Origin: Mauremys mutica | Lineage: Eukaryota; Chordata; Testudines; Geoemydidae | Assembly (NCBI RefSeq): GCF_020497125.1 | Contig: NC_059072.1 | Span: forward strand, 307,910,781-307,974,780 | DNA length: 64,000 nucleotides | Direction: 5' to 3' | Part shown: positions 42,480-55,439 of the stretch, piece by piece | How the letters are laid out: every line of letters begins with the position of its first letter | Position numbering within the stretch: the stretch's first letter is position 1 | Translations under genes and position numbers: made by a program | Notes under the pieces: generated by a model | Database searches by the model: none | Told to the model about the DNA's origin: nothing | Seen by the model: the letters and a program-made list of their open reading frames with translations, nothing else

Positions 42480-42499
42480 TGAGGGCTTGTCTACACTAC

Positions 42500-42660
42500 A
42501 GGACTATTTCGAATCTACTTAAGTCGAATTTGTGGATTCGACCTTATGAAGTCGAATTTGTGTATCCATACTAAATACACAAATTCGAACTTCTGAGTCC
42601 ACATTCACGGGGCCAGCTTCGACTTTGGAAGCGGTGCACTGTGGGAAGCTATCCCACAGT
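42500..42660. promoter_or_regulatory. Left subterminal region: TCGAA cluster and inverted box
   Basis: TCGAA/TTCGA occurs about six times between 42508 and 42623 (ATTTCGAAT, AGTCGAATT, ATTCGACC, AGTCGAATT, ATTCGAAC, CTTCGACT). At 42638-42660 there is a 9-bp-arm palindrome ACTGTGGGA...TCCCACAGT. AGCTATCCCACAGT (42647-42660) reappears inverted at the other end (46933-46946). Such subterminal motifs are where Harbinger Myb-like proteins and transposases are expected to bind. That role is inferred. Confidence 0.6.
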
Positions 42661-42842
42661 TCCCGCACTCCCCGCTGCCCATTGGAATTGTGGGATTTCC
42701 CCCCAATGCATGCTGGGGGAAAAAATGTGTCGTCATTGAACCGTCAATCCCGCCCTCCCTGTCTTCCTTGAAAGCGCCGGCGGGAAATCTGTTCGCGCCC
42801 TTGTCTGGTCGGTTACAGCGCGGACGCCACAGCACTGCGAGC

Positions 42843-44114
42843 ATGGAGCCCGCTGCGATCATCGCTGCACTTATGGCCGTTGTCAACTCCTCGCACGTTA
42901 TCGTCCACCTCTTCCACAGTCAGATGCTGAGAAACCGGGCGAGGAGGCTCCGGCAGCACGGTGAGGAGAGTGGCGCAGACCTCTCAGAAAGCAGGGTACG
43001 CCGGGCAGTGGAGATCATGGTGGCAATGGGTCAAGTTCATGGTGTGGAACGGCGATTCTGGGCCCGGGAAACAAGCACAGACTGGTGGGACCGCATAGTG
43101 CTGCAGGTCTGGGATGACACAGAGTGGCTGCGAAACTTCAGGATGCGTAAGGGCACTTTCCTTGAACTGTGTGACTTGCTGTCCCCTGCCCTGAAGCGCC
43201 AGGACACAAGGATGCGAGCAGCCCTGAGTGTGCAGAAGCGAGTGGCCATAGCCCTCTGGAAACTTGCCACGCCAGACAGCTACCGGTCAGTAGCGAACCA
43301 CTTTGGCGTGGGCAAATCTACCGTGGGGATTGCTGTCATTCAAGTAGCCCACGCAATCGTTGAGCAACTGTTCTCAAAGGTAGTGACTCTCGGAAATGTC
43401 CAGGTCATCATAGATGGCTTCGCCGCGATGGGATTCCCAAACTGCGGTGGGGCTATAGATGGGACTCACATCCCTATCCTGGCACCAGCCCACCAGGCCA
43501 GCGAGTACATTAACCGAAAGGGCTACTTTTCAATGGTGCTGCAAGCTGTGGTGGACCATAGGGGACGTTTTACCAACATCAACGTCGGGTGGGCGGGCAA
43601 GGTTCATGACGCGCGTGTGTTCAGGAACTCTGGTCTGTTTAGACGCCTCCAGGCAGGCACTTTCTTCCCGGACCACAAAATAACGGTTGGGGATGTGCAG
43701 ATGCCTACAGTGATCCTCGGGGACCCGGCCTACCCGCTAATGCCCTGGCTCATGAAGCCCTATACAGGCGCCTTGGACAGAGACAAGGAACTCTTCAACT
43801 ACCGGCTGAGCAAGTGCAGAATGGTGGTGGAGTGTGCTTTCGGACGTCTCAAGGGGAGATGGCGGACCTTACTGACTCGCTCGGACATCAGCGAAAAGAA
43901 TATCCCCGTAGTGATTGCTGCTTGCTGTGTGCTCCACAATCTCTGTGAGAGCAAGGGCGAGACCTTTTTGGCCGCTTGGGAGGTTGAGGCAAATCGCCTG
44001 GCTGCTGTTTACGATCAGCCAGACACCCGTGCTGAGAGAATATCCCAGCGGGAAGCGATATGCATCAGGGAGGCTTTGAAAGCGAGTTTCCTCGCAGAGC
44101 AGGGTAACCTGTGA
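42843..44114 (+). CDS. HARBI1-like PIF/Harbinger DDE transposase, copy 1
   Basis: Predicted 423-residue transposase that would cut and paste the element, normally together with its Myb-like partner. An HTH-like region at about 146-168 (SVANHFGVGKSTV) is followed by the RNase-H-fold DDE core: D206 in GAIDGTHIPI, D256 in GKVHDARVF and E330 in VVECAFGRLKGRW, with GDPAYPL at 293-299 between the last two. This spacing and these motifs match the HARBI1/PIF family. The start chosen is the ATG of MEPAAIIAAL, conserved in copy 2. The frame is open upstream to 42690 but without an ATG. No stop or frameshift is present. About 90 % identical to the copy 2 protein by hand count. An AATAAA lies 95 bases downstream. 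The nearest element gene, the Myb-like one, converges on it. Confidence 0.94.
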   Translation: MEPAAIIAALMAVVNSSHVIVHLFHSQMLRNRARRLRQHGEESGADLSESRVRRAVEIMVAMGQVHGVERRFWARETSTDWWDRIVLQVWDDTEWLRNFRMRKGTFLELCDLLSPALKRQDTRMRAALSVQKRVAIALWKLATPDSYRSVANHFGVGKSTVGIAVIQVAHAIVEQLFSKVVTLGNVQVIIDGFAAMGFPNCGGAIDGTHIPILAPAHQASEYINRKGYFSMVLQAVVDHRGRFTNINVGWAGKVHDARVFRNSGLFRRLQAGTFFPDHKITVGDVQMPTVILGDPAYPLMPWLMKPYTGALDRDKELFNYRLSKCRMVVECAFGRLKGRWRTLLTRSDISEKNIPVVIAACCVLHNLCESKGETFLAAWEVEANRLAAVYDQPDTRAERISQREAICIREALKASFLAEQGNL

Positions 44115-44209
44115 CTGTCCACTTGATTTTAAGAGAGCCTGATCATAAACCAAGTTTCCCCCAGTTCCGAAGGACGTTTTAAAACTAAGGACATGTTTTA
44201 GTAATTAAT

Positions 44210-44215
44210 AATAAA
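44210..44215 (+). terminator. Poly(A) signal of transposase, copy 1
   Basis: AATAAA 95 bases after the transposase stop codon. Confidence 0.6.
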
Positions 44216-44752
44216 TATTTCGTTGACTTTGCATTTCTCTTTCTTCGTTGAAACATGGAAGCACTCCGTGCTGGTTAAGGTGTGCACTGATGGGTGGGTT
44301 TGCAGGAAGGGGCGAGGGGTGCCGTCTTTGGATAGGGGTTAACATGACGGCTGTGGGTTTGGGCGTTGGAAGGGGTGAGGGGTGTGGGGGAAGGGTGAGT
44401 ATCTGCCCCTGGATGAGGTCTCTTTTTGGGGCTCAGGGCACCGGGGAGGATCGTGACTACGGTCCAAGAGCATGTGAAGGGAAGCCTGCCTTTACATTCT
44501 GGGATGTCAGGCACCAGGACCCTGCACAAGCATACACATCAAGGAAAGACCCGGGGCAGCATACACCACACAGACTGTCCCTGGTGCCTAGTGACTGCAG
44601 TCTGTGTGTGCCCTGCAGTTGACCCTGCAGCCAAGTCTGTAGCATGGCACTGTGGGCTATGCAGTGAAATTACACCCCCCCCCCCTACAGAACAACAGAA
44701 AGTCTTCTGACACCAGAAACATGACGGAAACAGTCAGTAACACAAAACCGCT

Positions 44753-44758
44753 TTTAAT
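44753..44758 (-). terminator. Probable poly(A) signal of Myb gene, copy 1
   Basis: ATTAAA on the minus strand, about 160 bases beyond the predicted stop at 44919. Confidence 0.45.
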
Positions 44759-44918
44759 AATGTAGTACACAGTGGGGGGTTTAAACTTGGAGTTGGGACT
44801 GGTTGATGCTTTAAGGAAAGAGCTTGTACAAATTTACAGCGCGACAGTTGTCTCGAACATTATCGGTGTGCTGCGGTGCAGGGACAGTTCTCACGGCCCC
44901 TACCGCCCCTCCGTCTTG

Positions 44919-45295
44919 TCACTTTGGGTGAGGGGGGGACAGGACTTCTTGGCGTTGGAGGGCGGTTGCAGATGCACTGCAGGGGGCTCTCTCCTCCTGA
45001 CTGCGGTCTTGCAGAACATCTACAAGGCGCCGGAGCGTGTCCGTTTGCTCCCTCATTAGACCAAGCAGCGTTTGAGTCGCCTGCTGGTCTTCCTGCCGCC
45101 ACCTATCCTCCCGTTCCATGTGTGTGCGATGCTGCTGACACAGGCTCTCCCTCGACTGTCTCTGCTCTGCCGCCTCCGCTCTGGAGCTGGCCATCAGTTC
45201 CTGGAACATGTCGTCCCTTGTCTTTTTCTTTCGGCGTCTAATCTGAGCCAGCCTCTGCGAGGGGGATGGCGGGGCAGTCCGGGAAGGACCCGAAG
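44919..45295 (-). CDS. Myb/SANT-like gene, exon 2, copy 1 (C-terminal frameshift)
   Basis: The acceptor is TCACACAG directly before 45295. The exon continues the phase left by exon 1 (one base carried over), giving ASGPSRTAPPSPS, then a basic cluster IRRRKKKTRDDM that looks like a nuclear localisation signal. A Q/E/R-rich, probably coiled-coil stretch (EDRWRQEDQQATQ, REQTDTLRRLVDVL) follows. Compared with copy 2, one C is missing from the C run at 44982-44986, so the last ~50 residues are replaced by about 20 unrelated ones before a stop. Predicted spliced protein: 317 residues. Residue 222 falls at the same codon distance from the acceptor in both copies, which supports the splice model. Confidence 0.8.
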
Positions 45296-45680
45296 CTGTG
45301 TGATGCGAAAAAGTAGGTGATTTCCTTGAACAAATACATGTTTTCCAACAGTAAACACAGTCTAGTCAGTTTCAGTTAAGAAGACCAAACAGGGAACCAA
45401 GTCTCAGGAGATCTCGGAACTAGTCCGAGATTTCGGAATACGCTCTCATTGGCGGCGCGATTGCACTGGATAGTGCACAAGCGAGGAGAGACAGCTGCAT
45501 CCCTCTTGCACAAAGTCCTGGTAAGCCTTACAGTACAGAGTGCTTATCAGTCACTGCTTAGCTGTGCTCTCCTGCTGGAGGCAATGTGCAAAGCAGAAAA
45601 GATGAGCGTTATGCGGCACCTCCCGCCAGTGAACGGGAAAGACCCCTGTATGCGTTTCCTCTGTGGCCTGCAACACGTGG

Positions 45681-45754
45681 CTGTTAAGCGAGGGTCATTC
45701 TTATGCAAAGTAAAACTCTGTTAAGCGAGGGTCATTCTTATGCAAAGTAAAAGT
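45681..45754. repeat. 37-bp tandem duplication
   Basis: CTGTTAAGCGAGGGTCATTC and the following 17 bases occur twice head to tail (45681-45717 and 45718-45754). Copy 2 has only one, so this arose in copy 1 or its lineage. Confidence 0.9.
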
Positions 45755-45797
45755 CTACCATGCACAATAGTAACAGTACACTAATTCCACTAATTAG

Positions 45798-46100
45798 ATG
45801 CAGCACTTCCACAACGACATCACCCTGAGGCGTGTCAGGCGCACACAGAGAGAGCGGATGCTAACAGAAGCCCTGCACAGACCAGGACCATACGCTGCCA
45901 TGCTCGTCGAGGCGATGGTCCCCCTGTACCTGAGGATGGCCTGGCGCGGAAGAGTGTGCTTCAACGGAGCACCCAATAAAGCACCTCTCCCAAGAAACCT
46001 CTTGCTGAGGCTTTTCCAGCTGCTCTCTGAGAGCTTTTTTGAACTATCCCCAGAGGACTATTGCTCCATTGCTGTTTGTGTAGACCTGCTGTTTGTCTAG
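45798..46100 (+). CDS. Conserved third ORF of Harbinger, copy 1 (unknown function)
   Basis: Codes for 100 residues and lies wholly inside the intron of the Myb-like gene, on the opposite strand. The protein starts MQHFHNDITLRRVRR and has a basic N-terminal third. A conserved centre follows (LHRPGPYAAMLVEAM, RMAWRGRVCF, GAPNKAP), then a helical LPRNLLLRLFQLLSESF segment and an acidic end. Copy 2 has an ORF of exactly 100 residues, about 77 % identical, with no indels. By my hand count about half of the changed codons are synonymous and most replacements are conservative (D/E, V/I, L/I, Q/E, Y/F), as expected under purifying selection. A TAG precedes the ATG in frame in both copies, and AATAAA follows 65 bases after the stop. 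I do not recognise the family. A distant BEN-domain-like helical fold is only a guess. Confidence 0.65.
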   Translation: MQHFHNDITLRRVRRTQRERMLTEALHRPGPYAAMLVEAMVPLYLRMAWRGRVCFNGAPNKAPLPRNLLLRLFQLLSESFFELSPEDYCSIAVCVDLLFV

Positions 46101-46164
46101 TTTCATATTTAAAAATTGTTATATAGTATTTCTATTTTTTATATATATCCCTGTTTCTTAAAAA

Positions 46165-46170
46165 AATAAA
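46165..46170 (+). terminator. Poly(A) signal of third ORF, copy 1
   Basis: AATAAA 65 bases after the third-ORF stop and before the Myb exon 1 splice donor (46194 on the other strand). The equivalent signal exists in copy 2. Confidence 0.55.
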
Positions 46171-46194
46171 TGTATCCCTGTTTGTAGCACTTAC

Positions 46195-46771
46195 CGCCTG
46201 ATCCTTCCCCTGATTCCGAGTCCGGGTTAACGGGCGGGGACGGTTGGTAGGGGATCTCTGTGAGGGTGATGAAGAGATCCTGGCTGTCAGGGAAAGCGGG
46301 AGTGGGTTCGATGTCGCCTGCGCCGTCCTCAACAGACCCTTCCTCATCTTCCCCATCGGCGAACAGGGAGGGGGAACTGTCCCGGTACACTATTCCGTCC
46401 TCGGAGTCCACCGTCACTGGTGGGGCACTGGTGGCAGACCCACCTAGAATGGCATGCAGTGCCTCGTAGAAGCGGCATGTCTGGGGCTGGGCTCCGGAGC
46501 GTCCGTTTGCCGCTCTGACTTTTTGATACCCTTGTCTTAGGTCCTTCACTTTCACGCGGCACTGCATCGCATCCCGGCTGTATCCTTTGTCTTTCATGGC
46601 TTTAGAGACCTTCTCGAAGGTCTTCGCGTTCCGCTTGTTGGAGCGCAGCTCCGAGAGCACAGACTCCTCGCCCCACACAGCGATCAGATCCTGGACTTCC
46701 CGGTCAGTCCATGCTGGGGACCTCTTTCTATTCTGGGATTGCCCGGACTCCTCTGCTGGAGAGCTCTGCAT
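46195..46771 (-). CDS. Myb/SANT-like DNA-binding protein, exon 1, copy 1
   Basis: Encodes residues 1-192 of the Harbinger accessory protein. A short Ser/Pro N-terminus (MQSSPAEESGQSQNRKRSP) is followed by a Myb/SANT-like (MADF-like) domain, about residues 17-110, with AWTDREVQDLIAVWG, RNAKTFEKVSKAM, QCRVKVKDLRQGYQK and CRFYEALHAIL. An acidic linker follows. In known Harbingers such a protein brings the transposase to the nucleus and to the element ends. The start is the ATG shared with copy 2. The frame stays open upstream, but the other copy lacks those residues' ATG. The donor is G|GTAAGTGC at 46195/46194. Confidence 0.88.
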
Positions 46772-46932
46772 CGTTGCAGGTGCTGCGGAGCTCGCCCCGA
46801 TGTGCAACCAGAACGTCAGATTCAAACCGCCCAGACAGGAAAATGAATTCAAATTTTCGCGGGTCATTTCCTGTGTGGCTGGCCAGAGAATCCAAGCTCG
46901 GAATGCTGTCCAGAGCGTCAACAGAGTGGTGA

Positions 46933-47145
46933 ACTGTGGGATAGCTCCCGGAGCTGCTAAGTTCGATTAGCATCCACACCAAGCCTAATTCGAGCTAGCA
47001 AGTGCGAATTTAGCGTTACTCCACCTGCCGGGGTGGAGTACCAAATTCGAACTAAAGAGCCCTCTAGTTCGAATTAAATGGCTTCCTGGTGTGGACGGTT
47101 GAGCGGTTAGTTCGAATTAACGCTGATAAATTCGAATTAAAGTCC
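46933..47145. promoter_or_regulatory. Right subterminal region: TCGAA cluster and inverted box
   Basis: Contains ACTGTGGGATAGCT (46933-46946), the inverse of the left-end box. It also has about seven TTCGA/TCGAA-type motifs between 46960 and 47140, several as palindromic ATTCGAATT or GTTCGAATT. It lies upstream of the Myb gene start, so it may double as that gene's promoter. Confidence 0.55.
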
Positions 47146-47480
47146 TAGTGTAGACCAGGGCTGAGTGTAGCAAAATCCTTTTAATAAAGGAGGGAAACAA
47201 TGTGGCATCACCATTGGAGAAACACCACAAACCAGATTATAACACAAACCATAAGCAAAAAAAAACCAATCCACCTCCAAGTACGTTTGGCAATGTCCTT
47301 TCCCCCTTAGGGTCTTAAGTCCAATCACCCCAAAGTCCAACAACCCAAAAGTCTCTGTCTCTGGTCAGTGCCCCCTCAGAGTTCAACAGTTTATCTGCAG
47401 AGTTTTACCCCCCCAGCCTGGGTGGAAATGGGGAGGGCACACACAGGGTGTTAAGGGGCACCTTACGTGGGCCGGGGCCA

Positions 47481-50560: not shown

Positions 50561-50639
50561 TTCTGTACAAAAACTTGTCCTTAATTAACTAAACCATACT
50601 ACTGTAGTTAAATTAGTGTAAGTTAGGCCTGGTCTACAC

Positions 50640-50854
50640 TAGGACTTTAAATCGAATTTAGCAGCGTTAATTCGAATTAACCGCTCAACCATCCACACCA
50701 GGAAGCCGTTTAATTCGACCTAGAGGGCTCTTTAGTTCGAATTCGGTACTCCACCCCGACGAGGGGGGTAGCGCTAAATTCGACATGGCTATCTCGAATT
50801 AGGCTATGTGTGGATGCAAATCGAACTTAGTAGCTCCGGGAGCTATCCCACAGT
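50640..50854. promoter_or_regulatory. Left subterminal region of copy 2
   Basis: About seven TCGAA/TTCGA motifs between 50650 and 50825, including palindromic ATTCGAATT at about 50670. AGCTATCCCACAGT follows at 50841-50854, with its inverse at 55259-55272. It lies just upstream of the Myb gene start and may serve as both transposase-binding region and promoter. Confidence 0.6.
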
Positions 50855-51015
50855 GCACCACTCTGTTGACACTCTGGACAGCAGTCCAAGCTTGGATTCA
50901 CTGACCAGCCACACAGGAAACGACCCGGGAAAATTTGAATTCCTTTTCCTGTCTGGGCACTTTGAATCTGATGTCCTGGTTGGACATCGGGGCGAGCTCA
51001 GCAGCACCTGCAACG

Positions 51016-51592
51016 ATGCAGAGCTCTCCAGCAGAGGAGTCCATGCAATCCCAGAATAGAAAGAGGTCCCCAGCATGGACAGACCGGGAAGTCCTGGATC
51101 TGATCACTGTGTGGGGCGATGAGTCTGTGCTTTCGGAGCTGCGCTCCAACAAACGGAATGCAAAGACCTACGAGAAGGTCTCCAAAGCCATGGCACTCAG
51201 AGGATACAGCCGGGATACAACGCAGTGCCGCGTGAAAATCAAGGACCTGAGACAAGGCTACCAAAAAGTCAGAGCGGCAAACGGACGCTCCGGAGCCCAG
51301 CCCCAGACATGCCGCTTCTACGAGGCACTGCATGCCATTCTAGGTGGGTCTGCCACCACTGCCCCACCAGTGACCGTGGACTCTGAGGATGGCATAGTGT
51401 CGACGGGCAGTTCCTCGGCGATGTTCGCCGATGGGGAAGATGAGGAAGGGTTTGTGGAGGACAACGCAGGCGACAGCGCTTACAATACTGCTTTCCCCGA
51501 CAGCCAGGATCTCTTCATCACCCTCACAGAGATCCCCTACCAACCCTCCCCGGCCGTTAACCCGGACTCAGAATCAGGGGAAGGATCAGTCG
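51016..51592 (+). CDS. Myb/SANT-like DNA-binding protein, exon 1, copy 2
   Basis: Encodes residues 1-192. The start is the ATG of MQSSPAEES, the first ATG shared by both copies; an in-frame ATG at 50971 is absent from copy 1. A Myb/SANT-like domain spans about residues 17-110 (AWTDREVLDLITVWG, RNAKTYEKVSKAM, QCRVKIKDLRQGYQK, CRFYEALHAIL). A long acidic Ser/Asp/Glu linker with FPDSQDLFITL follows. The donor CG|GTAAGTGC lies at 51592/51593 with phase 1. Without splicing the frame would run on only to 51663 through a lysine-rich, low-complexity tail that is not matched as a protein in copy 1, so I favour the spliced form of 348 residues. Confidence 0.9.
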
Positions 51593-51616
51593 GTAAGTGC
51601 TATAAACGTGGAAACA

Positions 51617-51622
51617 TTTATT
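51617..51622 (-). terminator. Poly(A) signal of third ORF, copy 2
   Basis: AATAAA on the minus strand, 60 bases beyond the third-ORF stop and inside the Myb intron, equivalent to 46165-46170 in copy 1. Confidence 0.55.
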
Positions 51623-51681
51623 TTTTTAAAAACAGGAATAAAAAATGTATAAAAACTATATAAAAACTTTTCCCTATAAAA

Positions 51682-51984
51682 CTATATAAAAAGAAGGTCC
51701 ACACATATAGGGATGGAACAGAAATCCTCCTGGGACACTTCCACGAAGCTCTCGTAGAGCAGCTCGAAAAGTCTCCGCAGGAGGTTCCTGGGGATAGGTG
51801 CCTTATTTGGTGCTCCGTGGAAGCACACTCTTCCGCGCCAGGCCATCCTAATGTACAGCGGAATCATTGCCTCCACCAGCATGGCAGCATACGGTCCTGG
51901 TCTGTGCAGGGATTCTCGCAGCATCCTCTCTCTCTCTCTCCGAGTGACCCGCCTCAGGGTAATCTCGTTCGGCGACTGCTGCAT
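51682..51984 (-). CDS. Conserved third ORF of Harbinger, copy 2 (unknown function)
   Basis: Codes for 100 residues, antisense within the Myb intron (51593-52449). The protein begins MQQSPNEITLRRVTRRERER and shares LHRPGPYAAMLVEAM, RMAWRGRVCF and GAPNKAPIPRNLL with the copy 1 ORF, ending CVDLLFI where copy 1 has CVDLLFV. The upstream DNA is also conserved (AATAGTAACAGTACACTAAT, then CTAATTAG just before the ATG). That CTAATTAG could be a splice acceptor, in which case the ORF would be a last exon instead of an independent gene. Predicted small, basic at the N-terminus, mostly helical, with no membrane segment or signal peptide. Function unknown. It may be a nuclear accessory factor. Confidence 0.68.
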   Translation of the reverse strand: MQQSPNEITLRRVTRRERERMLRESLHRPGPYAAMLVEAMIPLYIRMAWRGRVCFHGAPNKAPIPRNLLRRLFELLYESFVEVSQEDFCSIPICVDLLFI

Positions 51985-52449
51985 CTAATTAGGGCAATTA
52001 GTGTACTGTTACTATTGTGAATGCTTGACTTTTACTTTGCATAGCAATGACCTTCGTTTAACAGCCACGTGTTGGAGGCCGCAGAGGAAAAGCATACAGT
52101 GATCTTTCCCGGGCACAGCCGCGAGGGGCTGGAACAGGGTCAGACTTTATGCTTTCCAGATTGCCTTCAGCGGGAGGGCACAGCTATCCATTAACTGTTA
52201 AGCAGCCTATAGTGTAGTGCTTACCAGGCCTGGCTGCTACACGGATTCAGCTGTACCGCCCCGCTTGTCTGATCTCCTGTGCACGACCACAGCCAATGAA
52301 AGCGTATTCCGAAATCTCGAACTTGTCCTGAGAGCTCGTGAGACTAGGTGCCCTGTATGGTCTTGTTCACAGAAACTGACTAGACTGTGTTCAGTGTTCG
52401 CAAACATGTATCTTTTCAAGGAAATTACTTCCTTTTTCCCATCACACAG

Positions 52450-52919
52450 CTGCGGCTCTTTCACGAACTGCCCCGGCTTCCCCCTCACAGAGGCTGGCGC
52501 AGATTAGGCGGCGAAAGAAAAAGACTAGGGACGACATGTTCTCGGAACTGATGGCCTGCTCCAGAGCCGAGGCGGCCCAGCAGAGACAGTGGAGGGAGAC
52601 CCTATGTCAGCACCAGCGCTCACACAGCGAACGGGAGGACAGGTGGCGGCAGGAAGACCAGCAGGCGACTCAAATGCTGCTTGGGCTAATGAGGGAGCAA
52701 ACGGACACGCTCCGGCGCCTTGTAGATGTTCTGCAGGACCGCAGGCAGGAGGAGAGAGCCCCCCTGAACTGTATCTGCAACCGCCCTCCCCCGCCACAAA
52801 GTCCTGTCCCCCCCTCACCCAAAATCACAAGAAGGAGGGGCGCTAGGGGCCGTGAAAACTGTCACTCCACCCCAGCAGAGCGCTCATGTACCAAACAGCT
52901 CTTATGCCATAAATTTTGA
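52450..52919 (+). CDS. Myb/SANT-like gene, exon 2, copy 2
   Basis: Acceptor ATCACACAG at 52441-52449. The exon continues in phase to give AAALSRTAPASPSQRLAQ, the basic cluster RRRKKKTRDDM (a likely nuclear localisation signal at about 212-219) and a Q/E/R-rich helical stretch (HSEREDRWRQEDQQATQ, REQTDTLRRLVDVLQDR). The C-terminus is Pro-rich then Arg-rich (PPPPQSPVPPSPKITRRRG). Stop at 52919. The frame is intact, unlike copy 1. The helical segment probably mediates self-association or transposase contact (inference). Confidence 0.85.
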
Positions 52920-53163
52920 GAAGTGCTTCCCTTCCTGGATCACCCAGTCCCAAATCCAAGTTTCATCCCCCCACTGTGTAGTTGAGTATTAAGAGTAGTT
53001 TGTTGTTATTCACTGTTTCCGTCACGTTTTCCTTGTCAGAAGACTTTGTGTGAAGGGGTGGGAGGGGTTTTTTAATTGCATAGGACAGCCTCCATTACCA
53101 GGGTACAGACTTGGGGGCAGGATCAACAGCAGGACACACACAGACTGCAGTCACTAGGCACCA

Positions 53164-53221
53164 GGGTCAGTCTGTGAGGTGTATGCTGCCCCGGGTCAGT
53201 CTGTGAGGTGTATGCTGCCCC
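53164..53221. repeat. 29-bp tandem duplication
   Basis: GGGTCAGTCTGTGAGGTGTA plus nine bases occurs twice head to tail. Copy 1 has a single related copy. Confidence 0.9.
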
Positions 53222-53655
53222 AGGGTCCTAGCGCCTGCCATCCACAAATGGCAAGGCAGGCTGCCCTTACCATGCCCTTCCACCCTAGCCACGAGCCTCT
53301 CCGATGCCCTGAGCCCCAGCAAGAGCCCTCATCCACGGACACATACTCACCCTTCCCACACACCCCTCATCCCTTCCTACGCCCCAACCCCCAGCCCAGA
53401 GCCTGCATCCAAACTCCGTCCCAAAGACGGCACCCCTCACCCCTTCCTGCAAACCCACCCCTTCCTGCACACCCACCTGCAACCGTCCTCCCCCCAGAGA
53501 CCGCTGTAGGAGCAGGAGCCTGTCATTCCTCTAGTGTAGAAGCGGTTTGTACATCAGTGCACACCGTACCCACCACAGTCCGCGTCCATGTTTCAACCCT
53601 TGAACAGGAATTCATAATTAAAGAAAACTTTGTTAATAATCAGTGTTCCATTAAA

Positions 53656-53661
53656 TTTATT
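53656..53661 (-). terminator. Poly(A) signal of transposase, copy 2
   Basis: AATAAA on the minus strand about 115 bases beyond the transposase stop. Confidence 0.55.
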
Positions 53662-53777
53662 TTAAAACGTGTGTTGGAAGGGGGGAAACCTGGAGAACGG
53701 GGTATGTAACTGCAGATCGAAGTCAACAGTCACTGAAACAGGCTCAGGTTCAGCTTCTCTGTAAATCAACTGGAGAG

Positions 53778-55058
53778 TCATAGGTTACCCTGCTCTCCGA
53801 GGAACCTAGCTTTCAAAGCCTCCCGGATGCACAGCGCTTCCCGCTGGGATCTTCTATCGGCACAGCTGTCTGGCTGAGCGTAATCAGCAGCCAGGCGATT
53901 TGCCTCAACCTCCCATCCCGCCATAAAGGTCTCCCCCTTGCTCTCACAGAGATTGTGGAGCACACAGCAAGCAGCAATAACAACAGGGATATTTTTTTCG
54001 CTGAGGTCCGAGCGAGTCAGTAAGCTCCGCCATCTCCCCTTGAGACGTCCGAAAGCACACTCCACCACCATTCTGCACTTGCTCAGCCGGTAGTTGAAGA
54101 GCTCCTTCTCACTGTCCAAGGCGCCTGTATAGGGCTTCATGAGCCAGGGCATTAGCGGGTAGGCTGGGTCCCCGAGGATCACTGTAGGCATCTGCACATC
54201 CCCAACCGTTATTTTGTGGTCCGGGAAGAAACTACCTGCCTGGAGGCGTTTAAACAGACCAGAGTTCCTGAACACACGCGCGTCATGAACCTTGCCCGGC
54301 CACCCGACGTAGATGTTGGTAAAACGTCCCCTATGGTCCACCAGTGCTTGCAGCACCATAGAAAAGTAGCCCTTTCGGTTAATGTACTCGCTGACCTGGT
54401 GGGCCGGTCCCAGGATAGGGATGTGAGTCCCATCTATAGCCCCACTGCAGTTTGGGAATCCCATCACGCCGAAGCCATCTATGACGACCTGGACGTTTCC
54501 CAGGGTCACTACCTTTGAGAGCAGTTGCTCAACGATTGCGTGGGCTACTTGAATCACAGCAAGCCCTACGGTAGATTTGCCCACGCCAAAGTGGTTCGCT
54601 ACTGACTGGTTGTCTGGCGTTGCAAGTTTCCAGAGGGCTATGGCCACTCGCTTCTGCAAAGTCAGGGCTGCTCGCATCCGGGTGTCCTGGCGCTTCAGGG
54701 CAGGGGACAGCAAGTCACAGAGTTCAAGGAAAGTGCCCTTATGCATCCTGAAGTTTCGCAGCCACTGTGATTCATCCCAGACCTGCAGCACTATGCGGTC
54801 CCACCAGTCTGTGCTTGTTTCCCGGGCCCAGAATCGCCGTTCCACACCATGAACTTGACCCATTGCCACCATGATCTCCACTGCGCGGCGTACCCTACTT
54901 TGTGAGAGGTCTGCGCCACTCTGTGACTTCCTGTCCTCACCGCGCTGACGGAGCCTCCTCGCCCGATTTCTCAGCAGCTGACTGTGGAAGAGGTGGACGA
55001 TAAGGTGCGAGGAGTTGACAACGGCCATAAGTGCAGCGATGATCGCAGCGGGATCCAT
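53778..55058 (-). CDS. HARBI1-like PIF/Harbinger DDE transposase, copy 2
   Basis: 426 residues from the ATG of MDPAAIIAAL (conserved with copy 1). Catalytic residues: D209 in GAIDGTHIPI, D259 in GKVHDARVF, E333 in VVECAFGRLKGRW. Compared with copy 1 it has four extra residues near position 42-46 (GEDRKSQ) and lacks one residue in the HTH-like segment (PDNQSVANHF against PDSYRSVANHF), both from in-frame indels. No stop or frameshift, so probably functional or recently so. An upstream extension of the frame to 55133 exists, but copy 1 does not share its start codon. Confidence 0.94.
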   Translation of the reverse strand: MDPAAIIAALMAVVNSSHLIVHLFHSQLLRNRARRLRQRGEDRKSQSGADLSQSRVRRAVEIMVAMGQVHGVERRFWARETSTDWWDRIVLQVWDESQWLRNFRMHKGTFLELCDLLSPALKRQDTRMRAALTLQKRVAIALWKLATPDNQSVANHFGVGKSTVGLAVIQVAHAIVEQLLSKVVTLGNVQVVIDGFGVMGFPNCSGAIDGTHIPILGPAHQVSEYINRKGYFSMVLQALVDHRGRFTNIYVGWPGKVHDARVFRNSGLFKRLQAGSFFPDHKITVGDVQMPTVILGDPAYPLMPWLMKPYTGALDSEKELFNYRLSKCRMVVECAFGRLKGRWRSLLTRSDLSEKNIPVVIAACCVLHNLCESKGETFMAGWEVEANRLAADYAQPDSCADRRSQREALCIREALKARFLGEQGNL

Positions 55059-55258
55059 GCTCGCAGTGCTGTGGCGTCCGAGCTGTAACCGACCAGAGAA
55101 GGGCGCGAACAGATTCCCCGCCGGCGCTTTCAAGGAGAGAGGGCGGGAGTGACGGTTGAATGATGACAGTTACCCAAAACCACGCTCGACACATTTTTTC
55201 CCCCAGCAGGCATTGGGGGCTCTACCCAGCATTCCAATGGGCAGCGGGGACTGCGGGA

Positions 55259-55420
55259 ACTGTGGGATAGCTTCCCACAGTGCACCGCTTCCAAAGTCGA
55301 CGCTGGCCCCGTTACTGTGGACTCAGACAGTCGAATTAGTGTATTTAGTGTGGATACACAAATTCGACTTCATAAGGTCGATTTCACAAATTCGAATTAA
55401 GTAGATTCGAAATAGTCTTG
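55259..55420. promoter_or_regulatory. Right subterminal region of copy 2
   Basis: ACTGTGGGATAGCT (55259-55272) followed by GTCGAATT, ATTCGACTT, GTCGATTT, ATTCGAATT and ATTCGAAAT between about 55330 and 55410. Mirrors the left subterminal region of copy 1. Confidence 0.6.
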
Positions 55421-55439
55421 TAGTGTAGACGTACCCTTA

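What the first reader, a model, noticed from the sequence alone, without database searches (positions are those of the whole stretch)
51682..51984. A third conserved protein in a two-gene transposon family
Vertebrate PIF/Harbinger elements are known for two proteins, a DDE transposase and a Myb-like factor. Both full-length copies here also keep a 100-codon ORF (51682-51984 minus; 45798-46100 plus) with identical length, no indels and about 77 % identity. By hand count roughly 23 codons differ silently and 23 by replacement, and most replacements are conservative. Neutral drift would give a much higher share of replacements and would have broken the frame. I do not recognise the protein.
Basis: partly seen in the sequence, partly recalled or inferred. 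Interest (0 to 1): 0.87.

Follow-up and report, generated by a model that had tools for sequence, protein, structure and literature searches.

The report
Hidden third gene in turtle transposons
A family of jumping genes in turtles, thought to carry two genes, carries a small third protein gene tucked backwards inside an intron of the second one; selection has kept it in three divergent lineages, and its function is not known.

Summary
Both Harbinger elements (42483-47161 plus, TSD TGA; 50626-55436 minus, TSD TTA) have a 100-codon ORF with no gap, 77/100 identical residues, codon-position differences 15/9/36 and pairwise dN/dS 0.16; 0 of 1,200 neutral simulations reached that. The ORF lies antisense in the Myb-gene intron, on the transposase strand. 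Elements chosen by transposase alone carry it, whole or in part: 39/40 of the window B family, 43/48 of a second lineage, 10/10 of a third. In the other two lineages it looks like a spliced gene whose ATG is the last codon of exon 1; a Chelonia mydas hypothetical protein starts exactly as that splice predicts. dN/dS is 0.23-0.25 on internal and about 0.7 on terminal branches. Pfam and PDB give nothing above threshold; the only annotated relatives found are 10 proteins, nine of them from turtles and none with a named function. AlphaFold was unreliable (pLDDT 48). I conclude that it is a real, apparently undescribed third Harbinger protein, most likely an accessory factor for transposition or regulation; which of these is open.

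The parts
51682..51984 (-). ORF3 of element B, 100 codons
   Evidence: homologue whole or in part in 39 of 40 B-family elements chosen by transposase, ungapped and intact in 28
45798..46100 (+). ORF3 of element A, 100 codons
   Evidence: 66 of the 150 best hits, the window copy included, have the identical protein
51985..52224 (-). inferred intron of the ORF3 gene in B (donor GTAAGC after CCTG; acceptor TTAG just before the ATG)
   Evidence: donor position; resembles ATG|GTAAG of the third lineage; use not shown
45521..45797 (+). inferred intron of the ORF3 gene in A (donor GTAAGC)
   Evidence: inferred, use not shown
51617..51622 (-). AATAAA, 59 nt after the ORF3 stop in B
46165..46170 (+). 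AATAAA, 64 nt after the ORF3 stop in A
50626..55436 (-). complete Harbinger element B, TSD TTA on both sides
42483..47161 (+). complete Harbinger element A, TSD TGA on both sides
53778..55058 (-). DDE transposase of B, 426 aa from MDPAAII
42843..44114 (+). DDE transposase of A, 423 aa from MEPAAII
51016..51592 (+). Myb/SANT protein exon 1 of B, donor GTAAGT
   Evidence: Myb_DNA-bind_4 E 9.3e-21; donor
52450..52919 (+). Myb protein exon 2 of B (acceptor inferred from reading phase)
   Evidence: sequence read by eye; paired conservation of its later part
46195..46771 (-). Myb/SANT protein exon 1 of A
44919..45295 (-). Myb protein exon 2 of A (acceptor inferred)
   Evidence: sequence read by eye

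Best explanation
ORF3 is a genuine third gene of turtle PIF/Harbinger transposons. It is transcribed on the transposase strand from inside the Myb-gene intron, spliced over one short intron that in two lineages starts right after the ATG, and ended at its own AATAAA. It makes a protein of about 100 residues, probably mostly helical. I think the protein most likely acts in trans as a small accessory factor with the transposase and Myb protein (complex assembly, nuclear entry or DNA binding). Shown: conserved frame, conserved splice-like and polyadenylation-like signals, purifying selection. Inferred: transcription, splicing, translation, fold and function. I put the gene's reality at about 0.95 and the co-factor role at about 0.4.
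For: Pairwise dN/dS: 0.164 A-B; 0.20-0.26 in three comparisons of A or B with the third lineage; 0.19-0.22 in three comparisons within the second or third lineage. Internal branches 0.234 and 0.254, terminal 0.679 and 0.701 (Fisher p 0.064 and 0.0014). Presence, whole or in part, in elements chosen by transposase: 39/40, 43/48, 10/10. ATG|GTGAGT upstream in 39 of 43 and a 3' splice-site motif at the frame start in 39 of 43. AATAAA 49-60 nt after the stop in 26 of 29. Chelonia mydas protein P0122 of 101 aa starts MELVLEDISLL, the predicted splice product. A conserved core (PGPY in all 13 sequences aligned) suits a conserved partner such as the element's own proteins.
Against: No RNA or peptide evidence was available. 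No domain match above cut-off and no reliable fold, so the co-factor role rests on company and constraint only. 10 of 43 second-lineage copies are frameshifted and 11 of 40 B copies are partial or carry indels, as expected of dead copies but not proof of need. One antisense frame shows a like contrast (internal 0.38, terminal 1.12, p 0.0005). Between A/B or the third lineage and the second lineage synonymous sites are saturated, so no ratio could be had. In A and B the acceptor has a poor pyrimidine tract, so splicing there is uncertain.
Confidence: 0.5

Rival explanations
1. ORF3 is an antagonist of host silencing or another regulator of host defence, like SET or TET proteins carried by other transposons.
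For: Precedents: HarbingerS with SET, TET-bearing PHISTA Harbingers, a plant VANDAL protein that regulates its own silencing (PMC12730594, passages). It looks like a separate transcription unit and is kept beside the two proteins usual for the superfamily.
Against: No SET, TET or other domain above cut-off. dN/dS about 0.2 across diverged lineages is slow for an arms-race protein.
Confidence: 0.3
2. ORF3 is a self-limiting regulator, a repressor of transposase or of the Myb gene, perhaps partly through its antisense transcript in the Myb intron.
For: Antisense nesting inside the Myb intron in A and B, and the same order in the eight second-lineage elements read (their Myb exon 2 matches are weak, E 5e-4 to 0.39).
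Against: An RNA-only effect does not explain protein-level constraint. Self-restraint is hard to select for in multi-copy elements.
Confidence: 0.17
3. The open frame is chance or shadow conservation: constraint on splicing signals or on the opposite strand keeps it.
For: One antisense frame also shows a low internal ratio (0.38 against terminal 1.12, p 0.0005), and it is free of stops in 19 of 28 B copies.
Against: The sense ratio is lower (0.254); the four other wrong frames give 1.2-2.2. That antisense frame has stops in all 27 second-lineage copies and in copy A, and it shares third positions with the sense frame. ATG|GT, the 3' splice motif and AATAAA sit where a sense gene needs them. 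0 of 1,200 simulations.
Confidence: 0.03

Closest known systems
PIF/Harbinger transposons with transposase plus Myb/SANT protein (PMC4482050, passages)
   Same: DDE_Tnp_4 transposase, Myb_DNA-bind_4 protein, TIRs, 3-bp TSD
   Different: a third conserved protein gene nested in the Myb intron
TET-bearing PHISTA Harbingers and HarbingerS with SET (PMC12730594, passages)
   Same: Harbinger-like elements with an additional protein
   Different: fungi or oomycetes; the added proteins are recognised enzymes, plus in PHISTA a further protein without Myb/SANT; ORF3 matches no family
ISL2EU elements with a YqaJ protein (PMC4482050, passages)
   Same: an auxiliary protein beside the transposase
   Different: the auxiliary protein has YqaJ instead of Myb/SANT; ORF3 has no such domain
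Chelonia mydas hypothetical proteins UY3_03743 and UY3_03524 (P0122, P0121)
   Same: 74% and 73% identical to ORF3 of locus L068, same predicted start
   Different: named only hypothetical protein; 35% and 34% to window B

Membership tests
PIF/Harbinger superfamily (the elements) | DDE transposase of the Harbinger type | tested here: met
   DDE_Tnp_4 E 1.6e-36 and 7.6e-38
PIF/Harbinger superfamily (the elements) | second protein with Myb/SANT domain | tested here: met
   Myb_DNA-bind_4 E about 9e-21 in both
PIF/Harbinger superfamily (the elements) | terminal inverted repeats and 3-bp target duplication | tested here: met
   imperfect TIRs; B TTA, A TGA
PIF/Harbinger superfamily (the elements) | TSD sequence TWA | tested here: inconclusive
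   B fits (TTA); A has TGA
Two-gene coding capacity as described for most PIF/Harbinger elements | two proteins and no other | tested here: not met
   ORF3 under purifying selection
ISL2EU (YqaJ accessory protein) | YqaJ domain | tested here: not met
   no Pfam family above cut-off for ORF3; best were DUF707 E 0.14 and UNC45-central E 0.2
SET-, TET- or Fanzor-bearing elements | SET, TET/JBP or Fanzor/TnpB domain in the added protein | tested here: not met
   no Pfam family above cut-off
Any solved protein structure family | sequence similarity to a PDB chain | tested here: not met
   best E 0.34 alone and 1.1 with profile
Any known fold | structural match of a reliable model | not testable with these tools
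   mean pLDDT 42 and 48; no fold search was made

The most novel reading that the evidence does not exclude
Turtle Harbingers are three-gene transposons. A spliced gene nested antisense in the Myb intron encodes a previously undescribed helical protein family that the element needs in order to spread in turtle cells, and it has travelled with at least three lineages since before their transposases diverged.
Probability: 0.6. Interest if true: 0.72.

Novelty: new variant of a known kind. Interest (0 to 1): 0.63.

Why it matters
Most PIF/Harbinger elements are described as two-protein systems, and the domesticated human offshoots (HARBI1, NAIF1; recalled, not from a call) are read through that lens. 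A third conserved protein would mean that two-component assays of turtle elements may lack a part. It gives a compact question (what does a 100-residue orphan protein add?) and a protein family without a named function that has many intact, recently copied genes in one vertebrate genome. It also suggests how small genes nested antisense in introns of transposon genes escape annotation.

Tried and rejected
Chance ORF: rejected. C-terminal exon of the transposase: a profile search of the 120 listed transposase relatives (of 2,656 found) gave no ORF3 tail (best E 2); P0123 is an annotated model that joins a transposase-like N-terminus to the ORF3 exon, which I treat as a gene-prediction join, untested. 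Viral origin: one scan of viral contigs, no relative. RNA families: none at gathering threshold in the window. Structure: two AlphaFold jobs, pLDDT 42 and 48, too low for a fold search. Pattern search with AGR arginine codons: 0 matches; with a non-GTG valine: 2 matches, not used. The first protein search with B alone found nothing; a profile with second-lineage sequences found 10 proteins, so one search showed a limit of sensitivity, not absence. The transposase search as control shows that the database holds turtle transposon proteins.

Rows dropped: from the 29 second-lineage copies called intact by length, L064 and L079 were left out of the tree (altered N- and C-terminus), leaving 27; one search left out L064 only (28). 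Of 40 B elements, 11 partial or indel copies and 1 absent were left out of the B tree; the window copy was added (29). The 11 were not examined for in-frame gaps. In one search, 29 B copies chosen by ORF3 score gave singletons 17 non (2 of them stops) to 11 syn and shared 9 to 10; this set is biased and is not relied on. One search ended in an error after printing the pairwise table; one search failed and was rerun. In one search the second-lineage AATAAA distances were counted from the start of the stop codon; one search gives them from its end.

Papers: PMC4482050, PMC9179366, PMC7998251, PMC12730594, PMC8437027, PMC3627910 seen as passages only; others only as search listings. No description of this protein was seen in the listings of searches of an open-licence library, nor in those passages; I read no paper whole, and Repbase was not available.

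Full report
What was checked. The two ORFs are at 51682-51984 (minus) and 45798-46100 (plus), 100 codons each, ATG to TAG, with no gap. 77 of 100 residues are identical. Differences fall 15/9/36 on codon positions, with 34 synonymous and 26 nonsynonymous, dN/dS 0.164. In 1,200 neutral simulations 10-18% stayed open but none reached that ratio.

The elements. Element A spans 42483-47161 with TSD TGA; element B spans 50626-55436 with TSD TTA; both have imperfect TIRs. Each has a DDE_Tnp_4 transposase and a Myb/SANT protein on the opposite strand. The Myb gene has an intron: B exon 1 ends at 51592 before GTAAGT, and by reading phase exon 2 starts at 52450 (my inference). ORF3 lies wholly inside that intron, antisense to Myb and on the transposase strand. 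An AATAAA lies 64 nt (A) and 59 nt (B) after the ORF3 stop, just before the Myb splice site.

The genome. Contigs C9 and C4 of the window's assembly (106,458,794 and 164,363,298 bases) have the same lengths as the contigs of annotated Mauremys mutica proteins P0001 and P0005. Searches by ORF3 itself, scoring only the best 150 of 15,960 and 15,393 candidates, gave 148 of 150 (B query) and 149 of 150 (A query) without a stop inside, and 66 identical proteins for A. These lists are ascertained by ORF3 score and do not test integrity.

Sampling by transposase. To avoid that bias I chose elements by transposase only; each list is itself the best-scoring part of a much larger candidate set, so young copies are favoured. 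B family, 40 of the 94 listed: 39 have ORF3 whole or in part, 28 are ungapped, full-length and without a stop, 11 are partial or carry indels, 1 lacks it. Second lineage, found with a Macrochelys transposase 59% identical to B's, 48 of the 101 listed: 43 have an ORF3 homologue and 29 are intact by length; in the first eight, the six without a frameshift are 37-42% identical to A and B over their best stretch. Of the other 14 of the 43, ten are frameshifted, nine of them by their translations right after a Met-Val/Ile/Ala-Pro where the DNA of the eight located has a run of C, and four had no recognised acceptor; five of the 48 gave no match in the stretch fetched. Third lineage, Gopherus query 69% identical to B, 10 of the 96 listed (8 fetched, 2 from the search): all 10 have the homologue, 54-63% identical to B in the aligned part. 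6 of the 8 fetched were used as open frames; L155 has a stop, L156 lacks a recognised start, L153 has a TGA and L154 ends within the frame.

Gene structure. In the second lineage the frame has no ATG at its start. Upstream lies ATG|GTGAGT (39 of 43) and at the frame start a 3' splice-site motif (39 of 43), with 112-180 nt between them where both were found (alignment of the first eight). Splicing would give ATG followed in phase by the frame, colinear with A and B. The third lineage has the same design with ATG|GTAAG in both loci that reach that far; four of its copies have no ATG near the start of exon 2. A and B keep a donor GTAAGC (45521; 52224) but with CTG before it, while an ATG is the first codon after the acceptor AG. 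I infer that the start codon moved across the intron. Independent support: Chelonia mydas protein P0122 (UY3_03743) has 101 residues and begins MELVLEDISLL, as the splice predicts. AATAAA lies 49-60 nt after the stop in 26 of 29 intact second-lineage copies. No RNA was available to me.

Selection. On a tree of 27 second-lineage copies the ratio is 0.254 on internal branches (46.5 syn, 33.5 non) and 0.701 on terminal branches (41.5, 82.5), Fisher p 0.0014. For 29 B-family copies it is 0.234 (12, 9) and 0.679 (17, 37), p 0.064. Wrong-frame controls were run in the second lineage only: four frames give internal ratios of 1.2-2.2; the antisense frame that shares third positions gives internal 0.38, terminal 1.12, p 0.0005. 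That frame has stops in all 27 second-lineage copies, though it is open in 19 of 28 B copies, so I read its signal as a shadow of the sense frame. Pairwise ratios among 28 second-lineage copies fall from a median of 0.67 at dS below 0.05 to 0.24 at dS of 0.45 and above. Three comparisons of A or B with the third lineage give 0.20-0.26; comparisons with the second lineage are saturated at synonymous sites. This is what is expected of a gene selected in active elements and decaying in dead copies. For comparison, the A-B ratio is 0.41 for the transposase, 0.41 for Myb exon 1 and 0.51 for Myb exon 2, at lower dS.

Identity. No Pfam family above cut-off and no PDB relative. AlphaFold models are mostly helical but unreliable. 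Function therefore rests on inference.

Mechanism. The protein has been kept with two known transposition proteins through the divergence of three lineages, and in the A-B comparison at a lower dN/dS than theirs. I rank a transposition co-factor first (about 0.4), an anti-silencing factor second (0.3), a repressor third (0.17). Third proteins in Harbinger-like elements are known elsewhere (SET in HarbingerS, TET in fungal PHISTA; PMC12730594, passages), so the kind is known. This protein and its nested antisense gene were not seen in the listings of my nine answered searches of an open-licence library; Repbase could not be checked.

Noticed in passing
42483-47161 and 50626-55436: The two elements differ unevenly: dS 0.11 in transposase, 0.20 in Myb exon 1, 0.38 in Myb exon 2, 0.75 in ORF3, which suggests exchange of element ends between subfamilies.
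   Followed up: no
42480-42482 and 47162-47164: TSD of element A is TGA, not the TWA given for the superfamily.
   Followed up: no
45681-45754: Tandem 37-bp duplication just upstream of ORF3 in element A; B lacks the second copy in the alignment.
   Followed up: no
45798-46100: 66 of the 150 best hits have an identical ORF3 protein: a recent burst of the A family in this genome.
   Followed up: no
45521 and 52224: Apparent start-codon shift across an intron: ATG ends exon 1 in two lineages, but A and B have CTG there and ATG at the start of exon 2.
   Followed up: partly
P0123 (Chelonia mydas): Annotated model joins a transposase-like N-terminus to the ORF3 exon; it could be an alternative splice product or a prediction artefact.
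   Followed up: no
L069, L070, L075, L084, L090, L092, L094, L095, L097: Nine of ten second-lineage ORF3 frameshifts begin at the same place; the eight located there have a run of C: slippage hotspot or assembly error.
   Followed up: partly
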